A stretch of 64,000 nt of DNA from Planctomycetales bacterium ZRK34 (GTDB taxonomy: Bacteria > Planctomycetota > Phycisphaerae > Phycisphaerales > Zrk34), in NCBI GenBank assembly GCA_014873095.1, contig CP050848.1, positions 2,601,850 through 2,665,849 of the forward strand, given 5' to 3'. Made by a program: the position numbers and the translations under genes. This document shows, one piece after another, positions 39,998 through 53,825 of the stretch (the first letter of the stretch is position 1; the number at the start of each line of letters is the position of its first letter). Below the pieces are notes generated by a model. The model did no database searches, had not been told where the DNA came from, and saw nothing but the letters and a program-made list of their open reading frames with translations.

Positions 39998-40165
39998 TTC
40001 GTCAGGATAGCGTGCCGGAAGCGGTGTCCTATCTGACGTGAATATCCATCATGATCACACCGGCGGGCAACAATTGCTCGTTTTGGGCGAATCAGACGTG
40101 CTGTGTTAAAGAGCAAACCCGCTATTCGGATTTGTGTCTCTGGTTCATTGTTTGGAGTTCGACTC

Positions 40166-42289
40166 ATGCGTGCGGTTTCGATTTGCCTGGCTGGAATGTT
40201 GTTGGTCGCCGTCACAGGTTTTGCCTTTGGAGCTGAAGACACCCCTGCCGCGCCTGAAGCGGATCTTGGTCAACAGAAGGTGACAGCCCAGAAACTGCTC
40301 GATGAACAAACCTATCTCGTGGATGAATCCAACACGGCCACGCACACTGATACCGCACTGCTCGACTTGCCGCTTTCGCTGCAGGTGGTCCCCGAGCAGG
40401 TGATGCAAGACCAGGCGGCCAAGGATGTCTACGAAGCGCTGCGCAACGTCAGCGGTGTGCACCAGAATCGCGGCATTGCCTACAACAGCACCGACGACGG
40501 CGGCATCATCCGTGGTTTTCAGAACACGCAGATGTACTACAACGGATTTTTGATCGAGGCTTCGTCGGCTTTCAATGTGCCGAATCTTTCACGTGTTGAG
40601 GTGCTCAAAGGGCCGTCGTCGATGTTGTACGGCGTCGTGCAGCCCGGCGGCATCATCAACGTCGTGACCAAGACCCCGCAGCCGACGCAGGACGCTTACA
40701 TTCAGCAGTGGTTCGGCAGCTACGACAGCTATCGCTCGACGCTGGATGTGACCGGTCCGATCAGCGACGACGGCACACTGCTGTATCGACTCAACGGTGG
40801 TTACTACAACGAAGGCTCATTCCGAGATTACGTTGAGGAAGAACGCTTCTGGGCAGCCCCTAGCCTGACATTCCGACCCACGGATCAAACGACAATCACT
40901 GTCGACATGTCCTACGGCGAGCGCAAGCGTACACTCGACGAAGGTGTCTCCTTCGGTCCCAACGGCAAACCCGTCGGATCGATCGAGCGCTTTCTCGGTG
41001 AGCCCGGCCTGCCCGGACAGCAGCAGGAGGACTTCTTCGTCGGTGCGCGACTCGAACATGAGATCAGCGATGTTTTGACACTGCGCACCGGCATGCTGTA
41101 TCACCACTGGAAAATCAACCTCGATGGCGTGCGCCGGTCGTCGACGACGATCAGTCCGACAGGCGACGTCAATCGTCTTTACGACAACTCAGACTTCACG
41201 GAAGATTCATTTCAGTGGAACGGCGAGCTGCTCTGGAAATTCGACCTCGGCCCGACCAAGCATCAGCTACTCACCGGCGTGGATGTTCGCCATCGCAACC
41301 AGGCGATTGACCTGGAACGTGCCGGCTACACCACGGTGAATATCTACAACCCGCAGTACGGCGACCCGCTGCCGGCGACGCCGTTTCTCCTGCGACTTGA
41401 GTTCGATCGAACCTGGGCTGGTGTCTACATGCAGGATCAGATTTCCATGCTGGAGGATGATCGCCTCAAGCTTCTGCTTGGCGGACGTTATGACTGGGTC
41501 GAAACCACCGATGTCAACACCGCCGGCACGCCCAAGGAAACAGATCGCAGCGACAGCGTTTTCACTGGTCGCGCGGGTCTGCTGTATGAGTTGACCGATA
41601 CGATGGGCGCTTATGGCAGCGTCAGTCAATCCTTTTTGCCGTCGAGCACCAGCAGCCGCACCGTTTCCGGCGATCTGCTGGACCCCGAGGAAGGCCTGCA
41701 GTACGAAACCGGCCTCAAGTTCCGTTTTTTCGAGGATCGCCTGCTGACAACGGTAGCGGTGTACGAGTTGACCAAGGACAACGTTGCAGTGGCGGATCCG
41801 ACCAATCCCAGCTTTTCGATCAACGGGGGTGAGCAGCGCAGCCGCGGCGTCGAGTTCGATTTCAGCGGTGATCTCGGTGGCGGCTGGAGCGTCATCGGCA
41901 ACTACACCTACACCGATACCGAGGTGCTGAGTTCCGACAGCCTGCCTGTGGGTGGGCGCTTTCCCAACGTGCCGTTGCATTCAGGCAGCATCTGGATGCG
42001 CTACACGCTGCTCAACGGCGACTTCAAAGGCCTCGGCTTCGGGGCCGGTGTCTTCACCGCCAGCGAGCGCTCCGGCGACAACAACAGTTCCTTCCAGATC
42101 GGCGGCTACGAACGCGTCGACCTGGGCATCTTCTACGACGGCCAACTGCCTACCGGCCAACCCTTCCACGCTCAACTCAACGTCAAAAACGTTTTTGATA
42201 CCGAGTACTACGAATCATCGTTCGGCTTGACGCGCGTTTTCCCGGGCGATCCGCTGACCGTGGTCTTCACCGTCGGTATGCACTTTTAA
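40166..42289 (+). CDS. TonB-dependent outer-membrane receptor, siderophore type
   Basis: 707 aa from ATG 40166, with a Sec signal peptide (MRAVSICLAG to about residue 26). The plug domain has LPLSLQVVPEQVMQDQAA and VEVLKGPSSMLYGVVQPGGIIN, and the barrel ends in Phe (VGMHF) as needed for BAM recognition. This matches the FhuA/FecA-like siderophore-receptor branch. A plausible TonB box lies near residue 35. I see no clear Fur box upstream. GGAG precedes the start. The ligand is unknown. Confidence 0.92.
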   Translation: MRAVSICLAGMLLVAVTGFAFGAEDTPAAPEADLGQQKVTAQKLLDEQTYLVDESNTATHTDTALLDLPLSLQVVPEQVMQDQAAKDVYEALRNVSGVHQNRGIAYNSTDDGGIIRGFQNTQMYYNGFLIEASSAFNVPNLSRVEVLKGPSSMLYGVVQPGGIINVVTKTPQPTQDAYIQQWFGSYDSYRSTLDVTGPISDDGTLLYRLNGGYYNEGSFRDYVEEERFWAAPSLTFRPTDQTTITVDMSYGERKRTLDEGVSFGPNGKPVGSIERFLGEPGLPGQQQEDFFVGARLEHEISDVLTLRTGMLYHHWKINLDGVRRSSTTISPTGDVNRLYDNSDFTEDSFQWNGELLWKFDLGPTKHQLLTGVDVRHRNQAIDLERAGYTTVNIYNPQYGDPLPATPFLLRLEFDRTWAGVYMQDQISMLEDDRLKLLLGGRYDWVETTDVNTAGTPKETDRSDSVFTGRAGLLYELTDTMGAYGSVSQSFLPSSTSSRTVSGDLLDPEEGLQYETGLKFRFFEDRLLTTVAVYELTKDNVAVADPTNPSFSINGGEQRSRGVEFDFSGDLGGGWSVIGNYTYTDTEVLSSDSLPVGGRFPNVPLHSGSIWMRYTLLNGDFKGLGFGAGVFTASERSGDNNSSFQIGGYERVDLGIFYDGQLPTGQPFHAQLNVKNVFDTEYYESSFGLTRVFPGDPLTVVFTVGMHF

Positions 42290-42311: not shown

Positions 42312-43229
42312 ATGAACACTCAAAGCTGCTGCGATACGGAAATCATCACCCCCAACCCGCGCGGCGGAGCTGCCACCGCAGTCGTTGACGGACGCATCTA
42401 CCTGTTGGGCGGCGGGCACAACCAGTGGATCCATCTCGGCGATACCGACTGCTACGACACGGCGACTGGGTCCTGGCAATCGTGTGCCTCGATGCCGACG
42501 CCGCGCAGCAATGTGACCTGCGCCGTCGTGGACAAAACCATCTACGTCATTGCCGGCCTGATGAACCCCGATGCTCGAACCACCGATACGTCCATTCCCT
42601 CGGCGCAAGTTGAGGCGTTTGACACGGCAACCGGACAGTGGCGACGCTGTGCCGACCTTCCTTTTGCACGGGTCAAACCGGCCGTCGCCGCTGTTGACGG
42701 ATATATCTACGCAGCCGGCGGGCGTCATGAAGACACCAACACGACGCAGATTGTTCGCTACGACCCGGCTACTGACACATGGGAGCAAGTCGGCGAATTG
42801 CCCCTTGCGGTGCGTCATGCCGCGGGTTGCGCCGCCGGCGGCAAAATGTATATCAGCGGCGGGTGGGAAGCGCCGGCCGAACCGGGACAAGCACCGACGA
42901 TTCATGATCAACTCATCGAGTTTGATCCGGCGACCGGCGCCTGCTGCGTCATAGCGAAAATGCCGACGGAGCGCTGCACGCATGCAATGGTGGCGGTTGA
43001 TGATCGCCTGTACATCATTGGAGGCGTGCGCGGCAAGAAGGAATTTCTGCCGACGACGGATGTTTACTCTTTAAACCAGGCCTGTTGGGAGAAGGGGCCC
43101 GAACTACAGACCGGCCGCGCTATTTTCATGGCTGGAGTCGTCGACAAGGCGATCCATCTCGTTGGCGGGTGGTCACGGCTGTACAAGGTGCCTGTTGCGG
43201 TATGTGAGTGTCTGACTGCCGGCCGCTAG
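42312..43229 (+). CDS. Kelch-repeat beta-propeller protein
   Basis: 305 aa with six Kelch blades, each marked by a GG pair after a hydrophobic strand: IYLLGGG, IYVIAGL, IYAAGGR, MYISGGW, LYIIGGV, IHLVGGW. No signal peptide is seen, so it is likely cytosolic or exported by an unrecognised route. It follows the TonB receptor by 22 nt and is probably co-transcribed. The fold occurs in N-acetylneuraminate epimerases and in carbohydrate-binding propellers; the role here is unknown. Confidence 0.88.
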   Translation: MNTQSCCDTEIITPNPRGGAATAVVDGRIYLLGGGHNQWIHLGDTDCYDTATGSWQSCASMPTPRSNVTCAVVDKTIYVIAGLMNPDARTTDTSIPSAQVEAFDTATGQWRRCADLPFARVKPAVAAVDGYIYAAGGRHEDTNTTQIVRYDPATDTWEQVGELPLAVRHAAGCAAGGKMYISGGWEAPAEPGQAPTIHDQLIEFDPATGACCVIAKMPTERCTHAMVAVDDRLYIIGGVRGKKEFLPTTDVYSLNQACWEKGPELQTGRAIFMAGVVDKAIHLVGGWSRLYKVPVAVCECLTAGR

Positions 43230-43864
43230 CCATACATCATTAAGACCTGCTGCTGTACTTTGGTATCGCAAGCATGAGTTGTGATGCGTCAACGTGACGA
43301 ACCCCCTGCCGGGAATTCCCCCATTTGTTGTGGCGGGACCCAGATCGACGCGTTGGATTGTTCGGCACAGGGCTGAACAATCCGCCGGTTCAGATTGTGT
43401 TGTGCTAGTTTTAGTAGGGTGGCGCATGTGGTCGCGGACCATCTGAAAGTAAATGTAAGTGCTTTTAAGCGCTGTTTATCTGTCGTATTCAGAAGCTGGT
43501 CGGCTTGGGTGTGAGGTGGGTGGTTGTTGGCTTCTTGCGGGAATGGGGCATCTCACTGGCGGCTTTCAGATAGACGGTCGTTTGGGGGATGTGGCATTTT
43601 GCAAATCGGGTGAAATGTATTGAGACGACCACCGTTATCCCAATATATATACTCGAATATTGGAATTTGGCGACGCTTGATCTGACAGGCCGCCGTGGGT
43701 CATTGGTCGAGCCATACGGTTCGATACGCCTGCCTTTCCCGTCGCAGTGTTGACACCGTAGGGCGAGTGTTTGCGCAGGTAACAGACCCAATGTCATATA
43801 TCTCGCTTTTACAGCCTGTCCGAAAGCTTCCTCCGAATATCCACCGGATTTGAGGCGATTTGCG
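43230..43864. other. Long intergenic region before the coiled-coil operon
   Basis: About 635 bp, lower in GC than the rest, with no frame that looks like protein. It contains a strong hairpin (43355-43366 with 43372-43383, including GGATTGTTC / GAACAATCC) without a T tract. An AT-rich tract (43636-43665) and GAGG nine bases before ATG 43865 could be the promoter and ribosome site of the downstream operon. No firm promoter pair is called. Confidence 0.6.
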
Positions 43865-46800
43865 ATGAGCACCAAGACCGTTCTGTCGTTGACCGTTGCC
43901 TTTGCGATGTTGATGGGCGCTGTAGTTCACGCCGCGGATCAACCGCAATCCGCTGACGCCGCACCCCCGCCAAACGCCGAGGCCAAGGCGAAGGCCGACT
44001 ACGAAGGCGCCGAGAAAGCGGCCAAGGAGGCGGAGGTCAAAGTTGCGCCTTTAAGAGAGGCCATGCAGAAGGCCGACAAGGCGTATGCCGAAGCGAGAAA
44101 GATCGCAGACGCCAAGCGCCAGAAGGCGACGACTGCGAAAAACCTGGCGGGTGAACCGGGGCAGGCAGACCTCAACCGAGCCGAGGACAGTTTGCCGGCC
44201 GCCGTGAAAGCCCTGGATGAGGCGACCAAGGCAAAGCCTCCCTTGGACAAGGCATTAGCAGATGCCAAGGCTGAGGCAACCCCGTTGCAAGAGACTTACG
44301 ATGCCGCCGAGAAGGTGGCCCGTGAAGCCGAGGCAGTCGCCAAGGCCGCCTCTGATGCCGCCAACAAACTCGACAACGAAGCCAAGCGGGCCGCGGCTCA
44401 GGCGACGACCCTTCGACGAGTTGCGGATACTGCCAAGGCCGCCCTGGCCCGTGCTCAGCAAAGCGAACAGAACCTGCAGAAACAGGCCAACGAGGCGCCG
44501 GCAAAGTTGGCCGAGGCCGAAACACAGAAGAAGGCTGCTGATGCGGCATTGGCTGAAGCCAGGAAAAAAGTCGACGCAGCCACAAAGGCTTACCAGGCCG
44601 CCGAACAGGCTGCCGTTGCTGCCGAGGCCAACGCCAAGCCGGTGACCGAAGCCGAATTGAAACAATCCGCAGCCGACGCAGCCGCCAAACGCAAGGCCGC
44701 CGATGCGGCCAAAGCCGCCCTGGCTCAGACCCAGCAGGCCGAAAAGCAAGCCCAGGCTAAAGCTGGTGAAGCCGCCAAACAGTTGGCCGACGCTTCTGCC
44801 AAAAAGAAAGCGGCCGAAGGGACACTGGCTGGCGCCAAGAGCAAGGCGGCTTCCGCTGCCGCGGCTTCTCAGGTTGCCGAGTCCGCAGCCCAGGCTGCTG
44901 CGGCGACAGCCAAGGCGATCACTGATGATGCCGCCAAATCTCCAGAACAGAAGAAGATGGCTGCGGATGAAGCGGCTGCGGTTCGCAAGTCATCTGATGA
45001 AGCCAAGGCCGCGTTGACCCAGGCGCAACAAAACGAAAAACTAGCCCAGGCCCAGGTCAACACCGCCGCGAAGAATCTCGCTGATGCGACGGCGCAGAAA
45101 AAAGCTGCCGATGACGCTCTAGGTGTTGCCAAGAAAAAGGTGTCTGATGCGAGTGCTGCCCACCAGGCCGCCGAGCAGGTCGCCCAGAAAGCACAAGCCT
45201 CTGCCAAGTTGATCGCTGATCGTGCCGGTCGATCCGACGAGCAGAAGAAGCAGGCTGCCGCCGATGCCGCTGCCAAGCGCAAGGCCGCCGAAGCGGCGAA
45301 AGCCACCCTCGCCCAGGCCAAAGCCGCCGAGGATAGCGCGCAGAAACCGGTCACAGCCGCAGCACAGAAGCTGGCGCGTGCAACCGCGCAGAAGAAACTG
45401 GCCGACGCGCAACTGGCGGGCATCAAGAAGCAGGTAGCCTCTGCGGTTGCTGCATTGTCCGCTGCGGAGAAGTCAGCCAAGGCGGCAGAAACCACAGCCG
45501 AGCAAAAGAAACAGGCCGCCGCCCAGGCCGCCGCCAAACGTAAAGCCGCTGCGGACACCGCCGCCGCTCTGGCTAAAGCGCAACAGGCTGCCAACAAGGC
45601 GCAAGCAGAAGCCGCAGCCGCGTCGAAAAAGTCCACTGAAGCCCAGGCACAGAAAAAGTCAGCCGACGATGCACTCGCCGGCGCCAAGCAACAACTTGCC
45701 GCCGCGACCGAAGCATTAGCATCTGCTGAGAAAGTCGCCCAGGATGCAGCCGCCAGGGCCAAGCAGATTTCAGAGGATGCCGCCAAACCGGACCCCGAAA
45801 AGAAACAAGCCGCCGCAGACGCCGCCGCCAAACGCACCGCGGCTGACAAAGCCAAGGCCGACCTGGCCAAAGCCCAGGAGGCCGAGAAGCAGGCGCAGGC
45901 CAAGGCCGCGGATGCTGAAAAGAAACTCGCTGAAGCGCAGAAGCAGAAAAACGCCGCTGATCAGTCGGTAGCTGAAGCCAATGCGGCGGTAGCTTCCGCA
46001 ACCGCGGCTAACCAGCCTACGTATGAAGCGGCCAAGGAATTGTTGCAACTGGATGCGGTCGCCAAACAGACCGCCTCTGTCGCCGCCGAGAAGCGAAAGA
46101 TCGCCAACCAGGCCAAGGCTACTCTCGCTCCCAAGGCCAAGGCCCTGGAACAGGCGACGGTTCAGGCAAGGCGAGCCGCGCAGGCCCTGGACCGGGCTCA
46201 AAAGCGCAAGAAATCAGCCGAAGAAGGACTGGCGAATCTCAAGAAACGAATCGCCGAAGCCAAAGAGTCCCATGTCGCAGATGATAAAGCAGCCCAGGAG
46301 GCTGAGGCCGTCGCAGCGCCGTTGAAGACCGAAGCGGAAAAAACACGCGCTGCATATCTTGCTGCTAAAAATACCGCGGATGACAGGCGCGCCCAGGCCC
46401 AGCAGGCCAAGGCCAAATGGTACCGGCTGGTTGCGGCCAGGCGGGTGGCCAGCCTGATGGAAGCCTCCGAGCAGCCGAAACCCGCAAACCGAATTGATGA
46501 GATCGTATTTGCGAAGTTGAAGACGCTGGGCATACAGCCGGCCCTGTGTTCCGATCCGGTGTTTGTCCGTCGTGCCTACCTGGATGTGACCGGCACACTG
46601 CCCACCGCCGAAGAAGCCAAGGCGTTCATCCAGAATACAGACAAGAACAAACGCGTCGCTCTGATCGATCACCTGCTCAATCGTACCGAACACTTCGATT
46701 ACTGGGCGATGAAATGGTGTGACATTCTCAGGGTTAAAGCGGAGTTTCCGGTGAAGGTCTGGCCGAACGGGGCGCAGGCGTATCACCGCTGGGTTTGGGA

Positions 46801-48037
46801 ATCGATCGCCGAGAATAAACCTTACAATCAATTTGCCCGCGAACTGCTGACCTCCAGCGGGAGCAACTTCCGCGTCGGTGCTGTCAACTTCTATCGCGCG
46901 ATTCAGGACAAAACCCCCGAAGGCATCGCTGCGGCTGTAGGCCTGGCGATGATGGGGACGCGGGTCCATTACTGGCCCGAGGATCGTCGCGCCGGCATGG
47001 CGGTGTTTTTCTCGCAGGTTGGTTACAAGCCCACCAGCGAATGGAAAGAAGAGATCGTTTTCTGGGATCCCCTGAACTCGACGGCCGTGTCCGGCAGCAT
47101 CTCGCCGGGATACGACGCCGTGGCCAAGTCGGTGTCCGCCACCAACAAGATTCCGCAGGCGCTGGCTCAACCGATCAGTGAAAACAGGCCGTTGAACGCC
47201 GTCTATCCCGATGGCGGCAAGGCCACCATTCCGCCTGATCGCGATCCGCGTGTGACATTTGCCGACTGGCTGATTCGACCGGACAATCCCTGGTTTGCCA
47301 GGGCTGCGGTCAACCGAACCTGGGCATGGATCATCGGGCGCGGCATCGTTCACGAAGCTGACGACATGCGCGATGACAACCCGCCGGCCAATCCGGAACT
47401 GCTCGCGTATCTGGCGCAGGAACTGGTCTCCAGCGGATACGACCTCAAGCACATTCAGCGGCTGATTCTCACTTCAACCACATACCAGTTTTCACCCATC
47501 GTGCGGTCCGACAAGCCGGAGGCCAAGGCCAACTTCGCCAGCTACCAGTTGCGGCGTGTTGAAGCTGAAGTGCTCAACGATGCCATCAACACCATCACCG
47601 GCAGTACGGACCTTTACACCAGCGCGGTTCCCGAGCCTTTCACGTATATCCCCGACGAGATGGATGCGGTGGAAGTGGCCGACGGCAGCATCACCAGCCC
47701 CTTCCTGACGTTGTTCGGGCGTTCGGCGCGGGCGACGGGTATGGAAAGCGAGCGTGTGAACGAACTGGCCTCGCGCCAGTGGCTGTACATGCTCAACTCG
47801 GCCTCGATGCAGAACAAACTGCAGAAAGGCTCAAAACTCGCTGCGATGGTCTCTTCGGGCAGCCCGAAAGAAATTACAGAGCGGCTTTACCTGGCTGTTT
47901 TGTCGCGGTTCCCAACGGAATCGGACCTCCAGGCCGCCGAGGAATATGCCAAGTCAGGCGTGACCAAGGGGCGCGACGTATGGATCGACTTGGCCTGGGC
48001 GCTGATCAACAGCCCCGAGTTCTTACTGCGACATTGA
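43865..48037 (+). CDS. Giant Ala-rich coiled-coil protein fused to DUF1549/DUF1553
   Basis: 1390 aa from ATG 43865. A signal peptide ends near VVHA (residue 23). Residues 30-860 form an Ala/Lys/Glu/Gln-rich coiled coil built partly of repeats of about 97 residues (see 44393-46080). The C-terminal 520 residues are planctomycete DUF1549 (DEIVFAKLKTLGIQPA, FVRRAYLDVTGTLPT) and DUF1553 (FADWLIRPDNPWFARAAVNR, GYDLKHIQRLILTSTTYQ). These domains normally follow a cytochrome-like PSCyt1 domain, which is absent, and no CxxCH haem motif is seen. It is the first gene of an operon with DUF1501 and PPC proteins. It is exported; function unknown. Confidence 0.9.
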   Translation: MSTKTVLSLTVAFAMLMGAVVHAADQPQSADAAPPPNAEAKAKADYEGAEKAAKEAEVKVAPLREAMQKADKAYAEARKIADAKRQKATTAKNLAGEPGQADLNRAEDSLPAAVKALDEATKAKPPLDKALADAKAEATPLQETYDAAEKVAREAEAVAKAASDAANKLDNEAKRAAAQATTLRRVADTAKAALARAQQSEQNLQKQANEAPAKLAEAETQKKAADAALAEARKKVDAATKAYQAAEQAAVAAEANAKPVTEAELKQSAADAAAKRKAADAAKAALAQTQQAEKQAQAKAGEAAKQLADASAKKKAAEGTLAGAKSKAASAAAASQVAESAAQAAAATAKAITDDAAKSPEQKKMAADEAAAVRKSSDEAKAALTQAQQNEKLAQAQVNTAAKNLADATAQKKAADDALGVAKKKVSDASAAHQAAEQVAQKAQASAKLIADRAGRSDEQKKQAAADAAAKRKAAEAAKATLAQAKAAEDSAQKPVTAAAQKLARATAQKKLADAQLAGIKKQVASAVAALSAAEKSAKAAETTAEQKKQAAAQAAAKRKAAADTAAALAKAQQAANKAQAEAAAASKKSTEAQAQKKSADDALAGAKQQLAAATEALASAEKVAQDAAARAKQISEDAAKPDPEKKQAAADAAAKRTAADKAKADLAKAQEAEKQAQAKAADAEKKLAEAQKQKNAADQSVAEANAAVASATAANQPTYEAAKELLQLDAVAKQTASVAAEKRKIANQAKATLAPKAKALEQATVQARRAAQALDRAQKRKKSAEEGLANLKKRIAEAKESHVADDKAAQEAEAVAAPLKTEAEKTRAAYLAAKNTADDRRAQAQQAKAKWYRLVAARRVASLMEASEQPKPANRIDEIVFAKLKTLGIQPALCSDPVFVRRAYLDVTGTLPTAEEAKAFIQNTDKNKRVALIDHLLNRTEHFDYWAMKWCDILRVKAEFPVKVWPNGAQAYHRWVWESIAENKPYNQFARELLTSSGSNFRVGAVNFYRAIQDKTPEGIAAAVGLAMMGTRVHYWPEDRRAGMAVFFSQVGYKPTSEWKEEIVFWDPLNSTAVSGSISPGYDAVAKSVSATNKIPQALAQPISENRPLNAVYPDGGKATIPPDRDPRVTFADWLIRPDNPWFARAAVNRTWAWIIGRGIVHEADDMRDDNPPANPELLAYLAQELVSSGYDLKHIQRLILTSTTYQFSPIVRSDKPEAKANFASYQLRRVEAEVLNDAINTITGSTDLYTSAVPEPFTYIPDEMDAVEVADGSITSPFLTLFGRSARATGMESERVNELASRQWLYMLNSASMQNKLQKGSKLAAMVSSGSPKEITERLYLAVLSRFPTESDLQAAEEYAKSGVTKGRDVWIDLAWALINSPEFLLRH
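44393..46080 (+). repeat. Six roughly 290-nt tandem repeats encoding coiled coil
   Basis: Repeat units begin near 44393, 44672, 44960, 45253, 45513 and 45809, giving spacings of about 279, 288, 293, 260 and 296 nt. Each encodes a segment opening AAADAAAKRKAADAAKA-like, then AQKKAADxALAxAKK, and usually closing with xPEQKKQ. Copies differ at many positions, so the array is old or diversified rather than recently amplified. Confidence 0.8.
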
Positions 48038-48119
48038 TTGTGAATAAGCGTGGAGTCATGACGCAAACAGTCCGCCATCTGCAACGCAACGCACAACGGA
48101 CTCAAGGAGCACGGTAATC

Positions 48120-49535
48120 ATGAATACCAACCACCATCAGGACAACCCGGCGAATGTATCACGACGCGAAGCCATGCGGCGTGGCGCTTTGGGCGCCGCC
48201 GGCGTGATCGCCGCCGGTGATCTGAATTCCCATGTCTTCGCCGAGGACAAAAAGAAGACACCTGAGCAGGTCGCCGCAGAGTTGAAAGCATCTCGCGACG
48301 CCGCGGCGCTGGAGAAGGCCAAGAAGAAGGGCAAGATCAAGTCGGTCATCCAGATCTTCCTCTGGGGCGGCATGTCGCACAACGACACCTGGGATCCGAA
48401 GCCGGACACCGGCTGGGAATACATGGGCGAGTTCGGCAAGGTCATCCCGACCAATGTCGATCACATCAAGCTCGGAGCCCTGTTCCCCCATCTGGCCAAG
48501 CAGGCGGACAAGTTCTCCCTGATCCGCAGCATGACCCACGGCAACAACGGCCACGAAACTGCGGCCTACCTGATGCAGACCGGTCACAAGCCCGGCGGCC
48601 GATTGGCGTTTCCCAGCGTGGGCGCTGACTTCACATACTTCAAGAAGGACGAGTACAAGGGGCTGCTCCCGCCCTATATCGTGATGCTTCGGGCCGCGGG
48701 ACGATTCTCCGAAGAGGGCTTCCTGGGTCCGGGTTACAAACCTTTCGCTACCGGCGGCAATCCGAACTCCGATCGTTTCGAGGTCGAGGGAATCATCAAC
48801 CGGGGCATCGATGACAAACGGCAGGTCGCTCGCCGCGCCTTGCTCGATAAGGTCAATCTCATCGGCTACGGCCTTTCCGATGTGCCCGAGATGACGGCCG
48901 CCGAGTCCGCCAAGCAGAAAGCCTACGGACTGATCCTCGGCAGAGGCAGGGAGGTCTTCAATCTCGACAACGAACCGACTGTGCTTCGCGATCGCTACGG
49001 CCGCAATACCTTCGGGCAGGAATGTCTGGCGGCTCGGCGCATGGTCGAAGCGGGTGTGCCTTATGTCACGATCAGCTTCCCCGGTGGGTGGGACACGCAC
49101 TCGAATCACTTCCCGACGATGAAGCGACAGTGCCCTTGGTTGGACCAGGGACTGGCCACCTTGCTGGCGGATCTCCAGGACCGCGGCCTGCTGGAGAGCA
49201 CGCTCGTGTGGTGCACCGGGGAGTTCGGCCGCACGCCCAAGATTTCGTGGGAACCGCCCTGGAACGGCGGGCGTCACCACTACGGTAGAGTCTTCACGGT
49301 CATGGTCGCCGGCGGCGGGTTTAAGGGTGGGTGCGTCGTTGGTGCGTCTGATGAAAAAGGCGAAAAGGTCGCCGAAAGACCTGTTTATCCGACGGATCTT
49401 CTGGGCAGCTTCTACCTGATGGCCGGTATCGATGCCAAAGCCAAACTGCCCCATCCGCTCGGCTTTGATGCGCAGGTATTGGATTCACAGGCCGAAGGCA
49501 TGAAATCGACCGGACTTCTCGAAGAGATCATGTAG
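48120..49535 (+). CDS. DUF1501 protein, Tat-exported
   Basis: 471 aa DUF1501 protein of the alkaline-phosphatase-like/sulfatase-like fold. The N-terminus SRREAMRRGALGAAGVIAAG is a twin-arginine signal. Landmarks are IFLWGGMSHNDTWDPKP, GGWDTHSNHFPTMKR and CTGEFGRTPK, where the fold's metal ligands would lie. DUF1501 genes are regularly next to DUF1549/DUF1553 genes in planctomycetes, and no biochemical function is established to my knowledge. It starts 82 nt after the coiled-coil gene. Confidence 0.93.
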   Translation: MNTNHHQDNPANVSRREAMRRGALGAAGVIAAGDLNSHVFAEDKKKTPEQVAAELKASRDAAALEKAKKKGKIKSVIQIFLWGGMSHNDTWDPKPDTGWEYMGEFGKVIPTNVDHIKLGALFPHLAKQADKFSLIRSMTHGNNGHETAAYLMQTGHKPGGRLAFPSVGADFTYFKKDEYKGLLPPYIVMLRAAGRFSEEGFLGPGYKPFATGGNPNSDRFEVEGIINRGIDDKRQVARRALLDKVNLIGYGLSDVPEMTAAESAKQKAYGLILGRGREVFNLDNEPTVLRDRYGRNTFGQECLAARRMVEAGVPYVTISFPGGWDTHSNHFPTMKRQCPWLDQGLATLLADLQDRGLLESTLVWCTGEFGRTPKISWEPPWNGGRHHYGRVFTVMVAGGGFKGGCVVGASDEKGEKVAERPVYPTDLLGSFYLMAGIDAKAKLPHPLGFDAQVLDSQAEGMKSTGLLEEIM

Positions 49536-49569
49536 ACGACATGAATCAGCCATCCATCGGAGCGGCTCC

Positions 49570-51762
49570 ATGAATTGTTTCAACCGGCTTTGGGGTATCG
49601 GATTGGTCATTGTTCTGACAGTGGCCGGCTCTGCCTGGGCGCAGAGCCAGTACATCGGCTACGTCTATCCTGCCGGCGGCCAGCGAGGCAGCACCTTCAC
49701 CATCAAACTGGGTGGACAAAGACTCACCCATCCCAGTGATGTCGTCGTCACTGGTGAGGGCATCACCGCTCGCCTGGTTGAGTATTACCCTGTTCTGAAC
49801 AACCAGGAAATGGGGATGCTCCGGCAGTTGCTCAAGGAACTGCGTAAGAAAGAAACCACCCTTGGTGATGTGATGGCCGCCAAGATGGCTTGGTATGAAT
49901 TTCCCATGCCGATTGGCCCGACGGCGCCTTTGGCGGCTGTGTCTGATTCCAAAGACGCGCCATCCGAAAAGGAAGTGGCCAAGCAGAACCTGATTAAACG
50001 GATCGAGATGGTGTTCTCCGAAGATGAACGTAATCCAGCCGTCGCCGCTCAACGCGAGATTGTCTTTGCCGAGGTCACCATCGCGCCGGATGCCAAACCC
50101 GGTCGGCACGAGATTCGGGTCATCACCAAGCACGGTGTTTCCAATGCGCTGCCTTTTTACGTGGCCCAGGTTCCCGAAGTCGCCCGCAAGCCGGTGAATA
50201 CCTGTCAGAAGCCAACGCTCGGCAAGGAATCCCAGGCCCAAGTCAAAAGACCGGCGGATCAGGAGGAAATGCGCATCACACCGCCGTGTACAGTGAACGG
50301 CCAGATCGCCGCGGGCTGGGTGGACCGGTATCGCTTTGAAGCCAGCAAAGGCCAGCGACTGGTGATCGAAGCCAAGGCACGGGACTTGATCCCTTACGTT
50401 GCCGATGGCGTTCCCGGGTGGTTTCAGGCGGTGATGAAGCTCTATGACGCCAAGGGCAACGAAGTCGCCTACAACGACGACTTCTTCTTTCACCCCGATC
50501 CGGTGATCTACTATGAAGTCCCTGCCGACGGCGAATATGTGCTGACGATCACGGATGCACTGTTTCGCGGCCGCGAGAGTTTTACCTACCGAATCACGGT
50601 CAGCCAATCACCGTTTGTAACCAGTATCTTCCCGCTCGGCGGCCGCGTGGGTGAACCGGTGAAGATCGAAGCCCAGGGCTGGAACCTGGATAAGGCCAAG
50701 GTGGCGGCGCCTCCGAAAGACGCCAAGCCGGGCCCCCACATGATTGTCGCCAGCAACGGAAACTTTGTCTCGAATGCCGTGCCATTCGCCTTGGACACGT
50801 TGCCCGAGTGTTTGGATGCTGAGTCCAACGATGAACCGGCCAAGGCTCAAAAGGTGAGTCTTCCCATCATCGTCAACGGACGCATGGATCATCCCGGTGA
50901 TTGGGATGTCTTTGAGATCGATGCGAAAGCCGGCCAGACGATTGTTGCGGAAGTCAACGCGCGACGGCTTGGTTCGCCGTTTGATTCCTTCATCAAGATC
51001 ACCAACGCCCAAGGTAAAGTGGTCGCCCTGAATGACGATCATCATGATGCCGCGTCGGGGTTGAACACCGACCACGCCGATTCCTATCTCATGGCCAAAC
51101 TGCCCGCCGATGGAAAGTACCACATTCACATCGGCGACACCCGGCGGCACGCCGGCAAGGCTTACGCCTATCGCCTTCGCATCAGCCAGCCGCAGCCCGA
51201 TTTCGAGTTGCGCGTGATCCCTTCACGCGTCGTGATTCGCAGTAAGTCTGCGGCAAACCTGACCGTCTTCGCCATTCGCAAGGATGGGTACACCGGCCCG
51301 ATCAAGTTGAACTTCAAAGACCTGCCCAAGGGGCTCGAATCATCCGGCGCCACCCTGGGAGCTAATGCCGAGGTCGTGAAACTGACGGTGAAGACCACTC
51401 TGACGGATATGGAAGGACCGGTCGATCTCACGCTCATCGGTAGCGGGGCCGACGGAGATCGGCAAATCGTTCGCGAAGCCGTCCCTGCCGAAGACACCAT
51501 GCAGGCCTTCCTTTGGCGGCATCTGCTGCCCGCGGAAAACCTGCCGGCCCTGGTCTACAACTCCGCATATCAGCCGCCCGCCGATCGTGTGCGTCCGCCG
51601 ATTCGCGACGAGGATCGCCCCAAAGGGCTGAAGCGCAACCTGACCAAGGCGTCGGTCACACGACGTTTGAATGAAATCGAACGCCTTTATCAGAACTGGC
51701 TCTTTACCGATGATTTCGCCAACCGTGAGATCGCGAATATCGAAGCCCGCCTGATCAAATGA
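49570..51762 (+). CDS. Secreted protein with PPC domains
   Basis: 730 aa with a signal peptide (to about residue 25, AWAQS). An Ig-like YPAGGQRGSTFTIKLGG domain is followed by two bacterial pre-peptidase C-terminal (PPC) domains. The first has WVDRYRFEASKGQRLVIEA (about residue 253) and YNDDFFFHPDP. The second has DVFEIDAKAGQTIVAEV (about 445) and LNDDHHDAASG. It is the third gene of the DUF1549/DUF1501 operon, and similar triads are common in planctomycetes. It is probably periplasmic or surface-located; no catalytic residues are seen. Confidence 0.88.
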   Translation: MNCFNRLWGIGLVIVLTVAGSAWAQSQYIGYVYPAGGQRGSTFTIKLGGQRLTHPSDVVVTGEGITARLVEYYPVLNNQEMGMLRQLLKELRKKETTLGDVMAAKMAWYEFPMPIGPTAPLAAVSDSKDAPSEKEVAKQNLIKRIEMVFSEDERNPAVAAQREIVFAEVTIAPDAKPGRHEIRVITKHGVSNALPFYVAQVPEVARKPVNTCQKPTLGKESQAQVKRPADQEEMRITPPCTVNGQIAAGWVDRYRFEASKGQRLVIEAKARDLIPYVADGVPGWFQAVMKLYDAKGNEVAYNDDFFFHPDPVIYYEVPADGEYVLTITDALFRGRESFTYRITVSQSPFVTSIFPLGGRVGEPVKIEAQGWNLDKAKVAAPPKDAKPGPHMIVASNGNFVSNAVPFALDTLPECLDAESNDEPAKAQKVSLPIIVNGRMDHPGDWDVFEIDAKAGQTIVAEVNARRLGSPFDSFIKITNAQGKVVALNDDHHDAASGLNTDHADSYLMAKLPADGKYHIHIGDTRRHAGKAYAYRLRISQPQPDFELRVIPSRVVIRSKSAANLTVFAIRKDGYTGPIKLNFKDLPKGLESSGATLGANAEVVKLTVKTTLTDMEGPVDLTLIGSGADGDRQIVREAVPAEDTMQAFLWRHLLPAENLPALVYNSAYQPPADRVRPPIRDEDRPKGLKRNLTKASVTRRLNEIERLYQNWLFTDDFANREIANIEARLIK

Positions 51763-51879
51763 CATTCGCATAGAACGATCTTGTCAGCGATGGTGATCGC
51801 TATCACCGGCGAAGAGCATGACAAAGATGATCTCACTGATCGCACGTCCTGCGTCCATCCGCGGGGTGTCGGGTGTCTG

Positions 51880-53825
<1,946 letters not shown>

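What the first reader, a model, noticed from the sequence alone, without database searches (positions are those of the whole stretch)
43865..48037. Repeat-built giant coiled coil fused to DUF1549/DUF1553
Seen: one frame encodes a signal peptide, about 830 residues of Ala/Lys/Glu/Gln-rich heptad sequence with six repeats of about 97 residues, then DUF1549 and DUF1553. Known: these domains in planctomycetes usually follow a PSCyt1 cytochrome-like domain. No CxxCH appears here. Inference: a long rod, perhaps 100 nm or more, could hold the DUF1549/1553 head away from the membrane or cross the large planctomycete periplasm.
Basis: partly seen in the sequence, partly recalled or inferred. Interest (0 to 1): 0.72.

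Follow-up and report, generated by a model that had tools for sequence, protein, structure and literature searches.

The report
Unit-built rod on heme-less protein
This gene encodes a protein, predicted to be exported, whose alanine-rich front part is built from whole repeat units predicted to form long helices and whose head resembles planctomycete cytochromes but lacks both of their heme-binding motifs; related bacteria carry the same kind of rod with more or fewer units, so it likely serves as a spacer of set length.

Summary
In detail: window 43865-48037 encodes 1390 aa with a predicted signal peptide, an Ala/Lys-rich rod (aa ~39-860) and DUF1549+DUF1553, without CxxCH. It is not a one-off. 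Of 40 genome loci with heads 69-80% identical, all 36 with a visible N-terminus have an Ala-rich N-terminal region, in Planctomycetota, Verrucomicrobiota, Kiritimatiellota and Lentisphaerota. Downstream follow DUF1501 (32 of 32 testable loci, one a fragment) and a PPC protein (31 of 32). The rod has near-constant ends (N-cap 142 residues in 119 of 133, C-cap 118 in 133) and a varying number of 87- or 98-residue units. In rods of 600 residues or more, length moves in steps of about 94; shorter rods do not show the step. In the window's length class 21 of 21 rod pairs align without gaps, at identities down to 52%. The head belongs to a subfamily without either heme motif; its rod-less relatives have the same operon, and this genome holds both. 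No membrane anchor was found, and AlphaFold2 breaks the helices once per 98-residue unit, so a straight >100 nm stalk is not supported. Best reading: a helical spacer or assembly arm for an extracytoplasmic complex of unknown function.

The parts
43865..43933 (+). predicted Sec signal peptide, aa 1-23 (cleavage ...VVHA/AD by eye)
   Evidence: sequence; hydrophobic leader in 128 of 133 rods with placed N-cap
43979..44401 (+). rod N-cap, aa 39-179, near-constant length in the family
   Evidence: N-cap start to first unit is 142 residues in 119 of 133, 141 in 8, 140 to 327 in the other 6
44402..44680 (+). rod unit 1 (93 aa), aa 180-272
   Evidence: unit alignment and HMM
44681..44974 (+). rod unit 2 (98 aa), aa 273-370
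44975..45268 (+). rod unit 3 (98 aa), aa 371-468
45269..45529 (+). rod unit 4 (87 aa; lacks an 11-residue segment that holds the helix break in units 2, 3 and 5), aa 469-555
   Evidence: model shows an unbroken helix over aa 459-637
45530..45823 (+). rod unit 5 (98 aa), aa 556-653
45824..46087 (+). rod unit 6 (88 aa), aa 654-741
46088..46444 (+). rod C-cap and neck, aa 742-860
   Evidence: last unit start to neck anchor 118 residues in 133 of 133
46490..46912 (+). DUF1549 (PF07583), aa 876-1016, partial profile match
46949..46990 (+). segment that holds the internal CxxCH in heme-bearing relatives; here MMGTRVHYWPEDRR, aa 1029-1042
   Evidence: comparison by eye with L044, L045, L046
47249..47947 (+). 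DUF1553 (PF07587), aa 1129-1361
48120..49535 (+). DUF1501 protein (PF07394), second gene of the operon; AAGGAG upstream of its ATG
   Evidence: 301.9 bits; sequence
49570..51762 (+). PPC-domain protein (PF04151), third gene of the operon
   Evidence: 36.8 bits; conserved position

Best explanation
The protein is predicted to be exported and carries a rod built from repeat units, predicted to be helical, between two near-constant caps, in front of a DUF1549/DUF1553 head without heme motifs, and the rod likely acts as a spacer or assembly arm of set length for a complex with the DUF1501 and PPC proteins of its operon. Shown by sequence: the architecture, the near-constant caps, the change of length by whole units in rods of 600 residues or more, gap-free conservation in the window's length class, the absence of heme motifs from all heads of this subfamily that I examined, and the conserved three-gene order. 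Predicted: signal peptide, helices with a turn per 98-residue unit, antiparallel pairing of neighbouring helices. Inferred: the three products meet outside the cytoplasm; the head does not transfer electrons as proposed for its heme-bearing cousins but keeps a binding or catalytic role; the number of units sets reach or spacing between parts of the assembly.
For: Clade: in a tree of 182 heads the 133 rod proteins are one side of a branch, SH-aLRT 100. Length: 133 rods with both ends placed run from 404 to 1262; the window has 820. After removal of three duplicates, 130 rods give R 0.54 at period 93, reached by 0 of 2000 smoothed resamples; the 62 rods of 600 or more give R 0.89 at period 94. 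Caps: N-cap 142 residues in 119 of 133, C-cap 118 in 133 of 133. The unit order 91-98-98-87-98-87 recurs to within 6 residues per unit in 12 of 12 members of the 815-821 class, and the best match of a unit is the unit in the same position in 513 of 792 tests, chance 1/6. Window rod against L065 and L058: 822 codons, no gap, 65% and 53% identity. Hydrophobic period 3.45-3.55 in 126 of 130. Operon: of 32 rod loci with >=4.5 kb downstream, DUF1501 in 32 (L084 only a fragment) and PPC in 31. Uncut partners diverge with the head class: DUF1501 784-891 bits in rod operons, 428-703 in rod-less; PPC 985-1206 against 325-807. Heme motifs: 0 of 80 heads.
Against: Rods under 600 residues (68 of 130) show no step of about 93 (best R 0.26, at the edge of the range); counted over distinct lengths the period is weaker (R 0.35, 1 of 2000 resamples). 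Gap-free alignment fails in part: 540 class 4 of 10 pairs, 722 class 0 of 3, 624 class 28 of 36. No function is known for any of the three families; no PDB sequence relative of the head (best E 0.25) or of DUF1501 at E 1. The arrangement of the helices is low confidence (pTM 0.37). A complex of the three products is inferred from gene order and co-divergence only; lower partner scores may only mirror greater distance of the whole operon. Why a spacer should differ by several units between relatives is unexplained (at least 56 changes of unit number on a poorly resolved tree).
Confidence: 0.42

Rival explanations
1. A straight rod of 100 nm or more holds the head away from the membrane or crosses the planctomycete periplasm.
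For: Long helices and heptad periodicity; 820 residues as one straight helix would be about 122 nm (arithmetic, 0.149 nm per residue).
Confidence: 0.15
2. The rod is mainly an oligomerisation or partner-binding scaffold (for example for polysaccharide, cell wall or the PPC protein); its length follows from the number of binding sites rather than from a distance.
For: Unit number changes often (at least 56 changes, poorly resolved tree) and rods under 600 residues are not stepped; the rod of the window protein has 146 Lys+Arg against 110 Asp+Glu; structural matches include the peptidoglycan hydrolases RipA and Cg1735.
Against: Near-constant caps and gap-free alignment in the 820 class (21 of 21 pairs) point to a constraint on geometry; the structural matches are a common helical arrangement and show no function.
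Confidence: 0.32
3. The rod is low-complexity drift, an assembly artefact or an Ala-rich reading of GC-rich DNA without function.
For: Composition is biased and units are repetitive.
Against: Excess of 3rd-codon differences and 53-65% identity over 817-822 codons with 0-5 gap columns against four relatives; the same kind of rod in many assemblies; one place only in this genome at E 1e-5; DNA repeats are weak (40-44% in ungapped lag comparison; no long array), so collapse or expansion in assembly is unlikely.
Confidence: 0.03

Closest known systems
PSCyt1-PSCyt2(DUF1549)-PSD1(DUF1553) proteins with DUF1501 neighbours in PVC bacteria
   Same: DUF1549 and DUF1553 above Pfam cut-offs, DUF1501 next door
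   Different: no PSCyt1 match, no N-terminal and no internal heme motif, and a rod of about 820 residues instead
Heme-less, rod-less relatives (P0122 in the same genome; L086 and others)
   Same: no heme motif, same DUF1501-PPC operon, 43-63% identical head in 40 loci
   Different: N-terminus of 10-162 residues (upper bounds, read from stop to stop) without rod in 38 of 38 visible cases; P0122 has a Pro/Lys/Ala-rich stretch instead
PrgA of Enterococcus (PDB 6z9l)
   Different: rmsd 68-75 A, so only a common arrangement; wall-anchored Gram-positive adhesin (recalled); no sequence relation shown
Colicin E3/E9, RipA and Cg1735 helical domains
   Same: superpose on parts of the models at 3.2-4.0 A over 129-181 residues; I recall them as antiparallel helical hairpins
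TolA domain II (recalled)
   Same: Ala/Lys-rich long helical extracytoplasmic domain
   Different: TolA has an inner-membrane anchor (recalled), none found here; not compared by any search

Membership tests
DUF1549 / PSCyt2 (PF07583) | profile match above the curated cut-off | tested here: met
   99 bits against 29.8, but only profile positions 1-148 of 209
DUF1549 / PSCyt2 as a cytochrome-like protein | CxxCH 154-185 residues into the domain, as in 13 of 15 members of this genome | tested here: not met
   absent in the window protein and in P0122
DUF1553 / PSD1 (PF07587) | profile match above the curated cut-off | tested here: met
   142.9 bits against 28.5, profile 2-243 of 244
PSCyt1 cytochrome domain (PF07635) | profile match or N-terminal CxxCH | tested here: not met
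   no match at E 0.01, no CxxCH
coiled coil | heptad periodicity of the hydrophobic positions | tested here: met
   peak at 3.50 in the window rod; 126 of 130 rods at 3.45-3.55
coiled coil | two or more helices packed together | tested here: inconclusive
   hairpin-like matches of AlphaFold2 models with pTM 0.37 and 0.55; coordinates were not seen; oligomers not testable
anchored stalk (PrgA- or TolA-like) | membrane or wall anchor | tested here: inconclusive
   no lipobox or later membrane helix in the window protein by script; wall-sorting signals were not searched

The most novel reading that the evidence does not exclude
The operon encodes an extracytoplasmic molecular ruler: a helical arm of constant caps and a counted number of 98/87-residue units that sets a distance, in whole-unit steps in its longer forms, for a heme-free offshoot of the planctomycete cytochrome family, and that has spread as a three-gene cassette among PVC phyla.
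Probability: 0.25. Interest if true: 0.72.

Novelty: new variant of a known kind. Interest (0 to 1): 0.55.

Why it matters
DUF1549 and DUF1553 are abundant in some planctomycetes (41 copies each in Rhodopirellula baltica, PMC2754498, passage), and papers seen here call these domains, and DUF1501, of unknown function (PMC5615132, passages; PMC4452313, passages). A subfamily without either heme motif that keeps its head at 69-83% identity in bins of four phyla suggests that heme is dispensable for some role of this fold, which argues against a purely redox role. The rod, with near-constant ends and counted units, is a natural series of length variants, so whether a bacterial extracytoplasmic coiled coil sets a distance can be tested directly. 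The papers found (listings; passages of three) gave no description of this architecture; most subscription journals are not held.

Tried and rejected
Recurrent neighbours beyond the three-gene operon: clustering of 438 flanking ORFs of 80 loci gave no family in more than 3 of the 39 rod loci, apart from a cluster of minus-strand frames in 11 rod loci that I read as antisense ORFs of the operon. PDB sequence relatives of head (E up to 10, best 0.25) and DUF1501 (E up to 1): none convincing. NCBIfam: only an SMC match to the rod, 18.4 bits against a cut-off of 567, which I read as coiled-coil composition. Rod elsewhere in this genome: only itself at E 1e-5. Rfam: no match in the window at gathering scores. 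Sigma-70 promoter scan: nothing in 43200-52400. Horizontal transfer: phylum labels need 11 changes against a least possible 4 on the tree of 67 rows (shuffled mean 19.8), but many branches are open, bins may be mixed and paralogues split groups, so transfer is suggested, not shown. Prevalence: rod-type heads in 2 of 294 genomes of the phylum sample, this genome included (the other, G336, partial at 75%), at E 1e-100, and in none of the 60 other genomes (best identity there 62%), so the class is rare. The protein search only admits lengths of 765-2432 aa, lists 120 of 716 hits and so favours long N-termini; the length-blind genome scan is the fair test. The likeness of the two rod ends (132 of 133 beyond all 20 shuffles) is not used as evidence of a closing hairpin, because shuffling also destroys heptads.

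Rows dropped: 27 of 160 rod-type rows had no N-cap placed or were cut. In one search, L042, L092, L097, L112, L120 and P0128 were left out, and 5 of 121 proteins of the P0122 class (P0122 and the hits listed) were used. In one search the first 45 of 66 pairs of the 630 class were aligned, one of its 13 rows (P0090) being dropped for a misplaced N-cap; that row also failed in the period count (128 of 133), repeated. Three pairs among the 133 are near-identical or the same protein from two collections (P0033/L050, P0091/L108, P0117/L113); one search counts them once. In one search the score cut put L112 (77% identical, contig starts inside the head) with the rod-less rows; by identity there are 40 rod-type and 40 rod-less loci. 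Searches ended in script errors; the part printed before the error is used.

Full report
What is there. Window 43865-48037 (+) is one open frame of 1390 aa with a predicted signal peptide, an Ala/Lys/Gln/Glu-rich region (aa ~39-860), DUF1549 (aa 876-1016, only profile positions 1-148 of 209) and DUF1553 (aa 1129-1361). There is no CxxCH. Directly downstream lie a DUF1501 protein (48120-49535) and a PPC-domain protein (49570-51762). A GAGG lies upstream of ATG 43865 and an AAGGAG before the DUF1501 start.

The repeats. Self-similarity peaks at lags 98, 185 and 283, and hydrophobic residues at period 3.50, i.e. heptads. Six central units of 93, 98, 98, 87, 98 and 88 aa (borders as; the profile-based starts give 91, 98, 98, 87, 98, 87) are 42-58% identical to each other. 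Unit 4 lacks an 11-residue stretch that in units 2, 3 and 5 holds the helix break. Unit lengths over the family peak at 87 (114 cases) and 98 (97 cases), with a smaller peak at 92 (31).

It is a family. A search with the head (candidates 765-2432 aa) gave 716 hits; the 120 listed are 74-83% identical, and 120 of 120 have an N-terminus with at least 29% Ala and no CxxCH. Because that search favours long proteins, the length-blind scan of genome contigs is the fair test: of 80 loci kept (119 found), 40 have heads 69-80% identical and 40 have heads 43-63% identical. Among the first 40, four contigs start at or inside the head; the other 36 have an Ala-rich (27-41%) N-terminus of 237 residues or more. 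Among the second 40, two are cut; the other 38 have 10-162 residues and no rod (where the score cut places truncated L112 with the second group). A search with P0122 (353-1125 aa admitted, 120 of 7991 hits listed) gave 0 of 120 with CxxCH, and a median N-terminus of 27 residues in the 111 that could be measured. In a tree of 182 heads the rod proteins are one side of a branch (SH-aLRT 100) and need one change. Ten assemblies among the 80 loci hold both classes (read from the record names), as does the window's own genome (window and P0122).

Heme. In this genome 13 of 15 DUF1549 proteins carry a CxxCH 154-185 residues into the domain, 8 of them also one further N-terminal; the window protein and P0122 carry neither. 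None of the 80 heads has one; one frame (L066) has such a motif about 1200 residues upstream of its head. The four heme-bearing relatives used for comparison (L044, L045, L046, L049) have both. The partial DUF1549 match is thus explained by a changed segment where others hold the heme motif (aa 1029-1042, by eye). The rod did not replace PSCyt1 directly: the rod-less relatives lack heme motifs too, so the simplest order is loss of heme first and gain of the rod later (inference, with the heme-bearing rows as outgroup).

A counted length. In 133 of 160 rod-type proteins both ends could be placed. The distance from N-cap to neck runs from 404 to 1262; the window has 820. Counting three duplicated proteins once, 130 rods give R 0.54 at period 93, reached by 0 of 2000 smoothed resamples; over 78 distinct lengths R is 0.35, reached by 1 of 2000. 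The signal comes from the 62 rods of 600 residues or more (R 0.89 at 94; classes near 624-630, 722-730, 815-821, 991-994, 1095-1107). The 68 shorter rods fill 404-592 almost continuously and show no such step (R 0.26 at the edge of the range). The caps hardly vary: 142 residues in 119 of 133 and 141 in 8 for the N-cap, 118 in 133 of 133 for the C-cap. Among proteins of exactly equal rod length (which favours this result), gap-free rod pairs are 21 of 21 at 820 (identity down to 52%), 43 of 45 at 630 (down to 41%), 28 of 36 at 624, 6 of 6 at 545, 4 of 10 at 540 and 0 of 3 at 722; the heads of the 820 pairs are gap-free in 15 of 21. Units keep their place: same-position identity between proteins is 0.58, other positions 0.49, units within one protein 0.52, and the best match is the same position in 513 of 792 tests. 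The rod is thus old, and its units descend as units; the least number of unit-number changes on the tree is 56, a figure raised by poor resolution and by rounding of the short rods.

Where it is and with whom. By a hydropathy script a hydrophobic leader is present in 128 of 133, a lipobox-like motif in 2, a possible later membrane helix in 2, so a soluble exported protein is predicted. Of 32 rod loci with at least 4.5 kb downstream, 32 have a DUF1501 match (L084 only a fragment of 37 bits) and 31 have PPC; of 25 rows of the other class, 25 and 25. Partners diverge with the head class. No other neighbour family is found in more than 3 of 39 rod loci, apart from a set of minus-strand frames over the operon. 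The class is rare and scattered: 2 of 294 genomes in the phylum sample, this one included, yet present in bins named after four phyla.

Mechanism. Shown: architecture, near-constant caps, stepped length in the longer rods, absence of heme motifs, operon. Predicted: export, helices, turns. Inferred: a complex outside the cytoplasm in which the rod sets reach or spacing and the head binds or acts together with DUF1501. The papers give no function: He et al. 2017 write that nothing is known about the functions of these domains, though some proteins also carry carbohydrate-binding modules (PMC5615132, passages; 'coiled' occurs 0 times in its main text); a redox role is suggested for a DUF1549-DUF1553 protein of Rhodopirellula (PMC2754498, passage), which is unlikely to hold through bound heme for members without CxxCH; DUF1501 is called uncharacterised in PMC4452313 (passages).

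Verdict. I rate it a new variant of a known kind: a rod-bearing class, without heme motifs, of the DUF1549/DUF1553 family, with ruler-like length classes among its longer rods.

Noticed in passing
L039:3183-8874 (-): A complete paralogous operon (rod-less, heme-less DUF1549/1553 P0122; DUF1501; PPC protein) lies elsewhere in the same genome.
   Followed up: yes
window 40103-42289 and 42312-43229: A TonB-dependent siderophore-type receptor (TIGR01783, 366 bits against 223.5) is followed by a kelch-repeat protein upstream of the operon; I did not look for this pair in the other loci.
   Followed up: no
L042:7618-9299 (-): In genome G051 the heme-less DUF1549 and DUF1553 parts lie in two overlapping frames, a split gene or a sequencing error.
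   Followed up: no
L066:2895-9575 (+): A Lentisphaerae member has a frame with 1699 residues before the head, including a CxxCH-like motif about 1200 residues upstream of it; more than rod units may be fused here.
   Followed up: no
L088, L090: Two Lentisphaerae rod-less operons carry two PPC-like frames in a row instead of one.
   Followed up: no
L084:8250-16249: The rod protein is a full frame, but the DUF1501 match downstream is a short fragment and no PPC match is found.
   Followed up: no
P0148: A heme-less, rod-less relative has long Pro/Lys/Thr-rich stretches both at its N-terminus and between DUF1549 and DUF1553, so low-complexity inserts occur at two sites in this subfamily.
   Followed up: no
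first 60 and last 75 residues of the rod, window 43979-44158 and 46220-46444: The two ends of the rod resemble each other (132 of 133 members beyond all 20 shuffles); part of this may be shared heptad register.
   Followed up: partly
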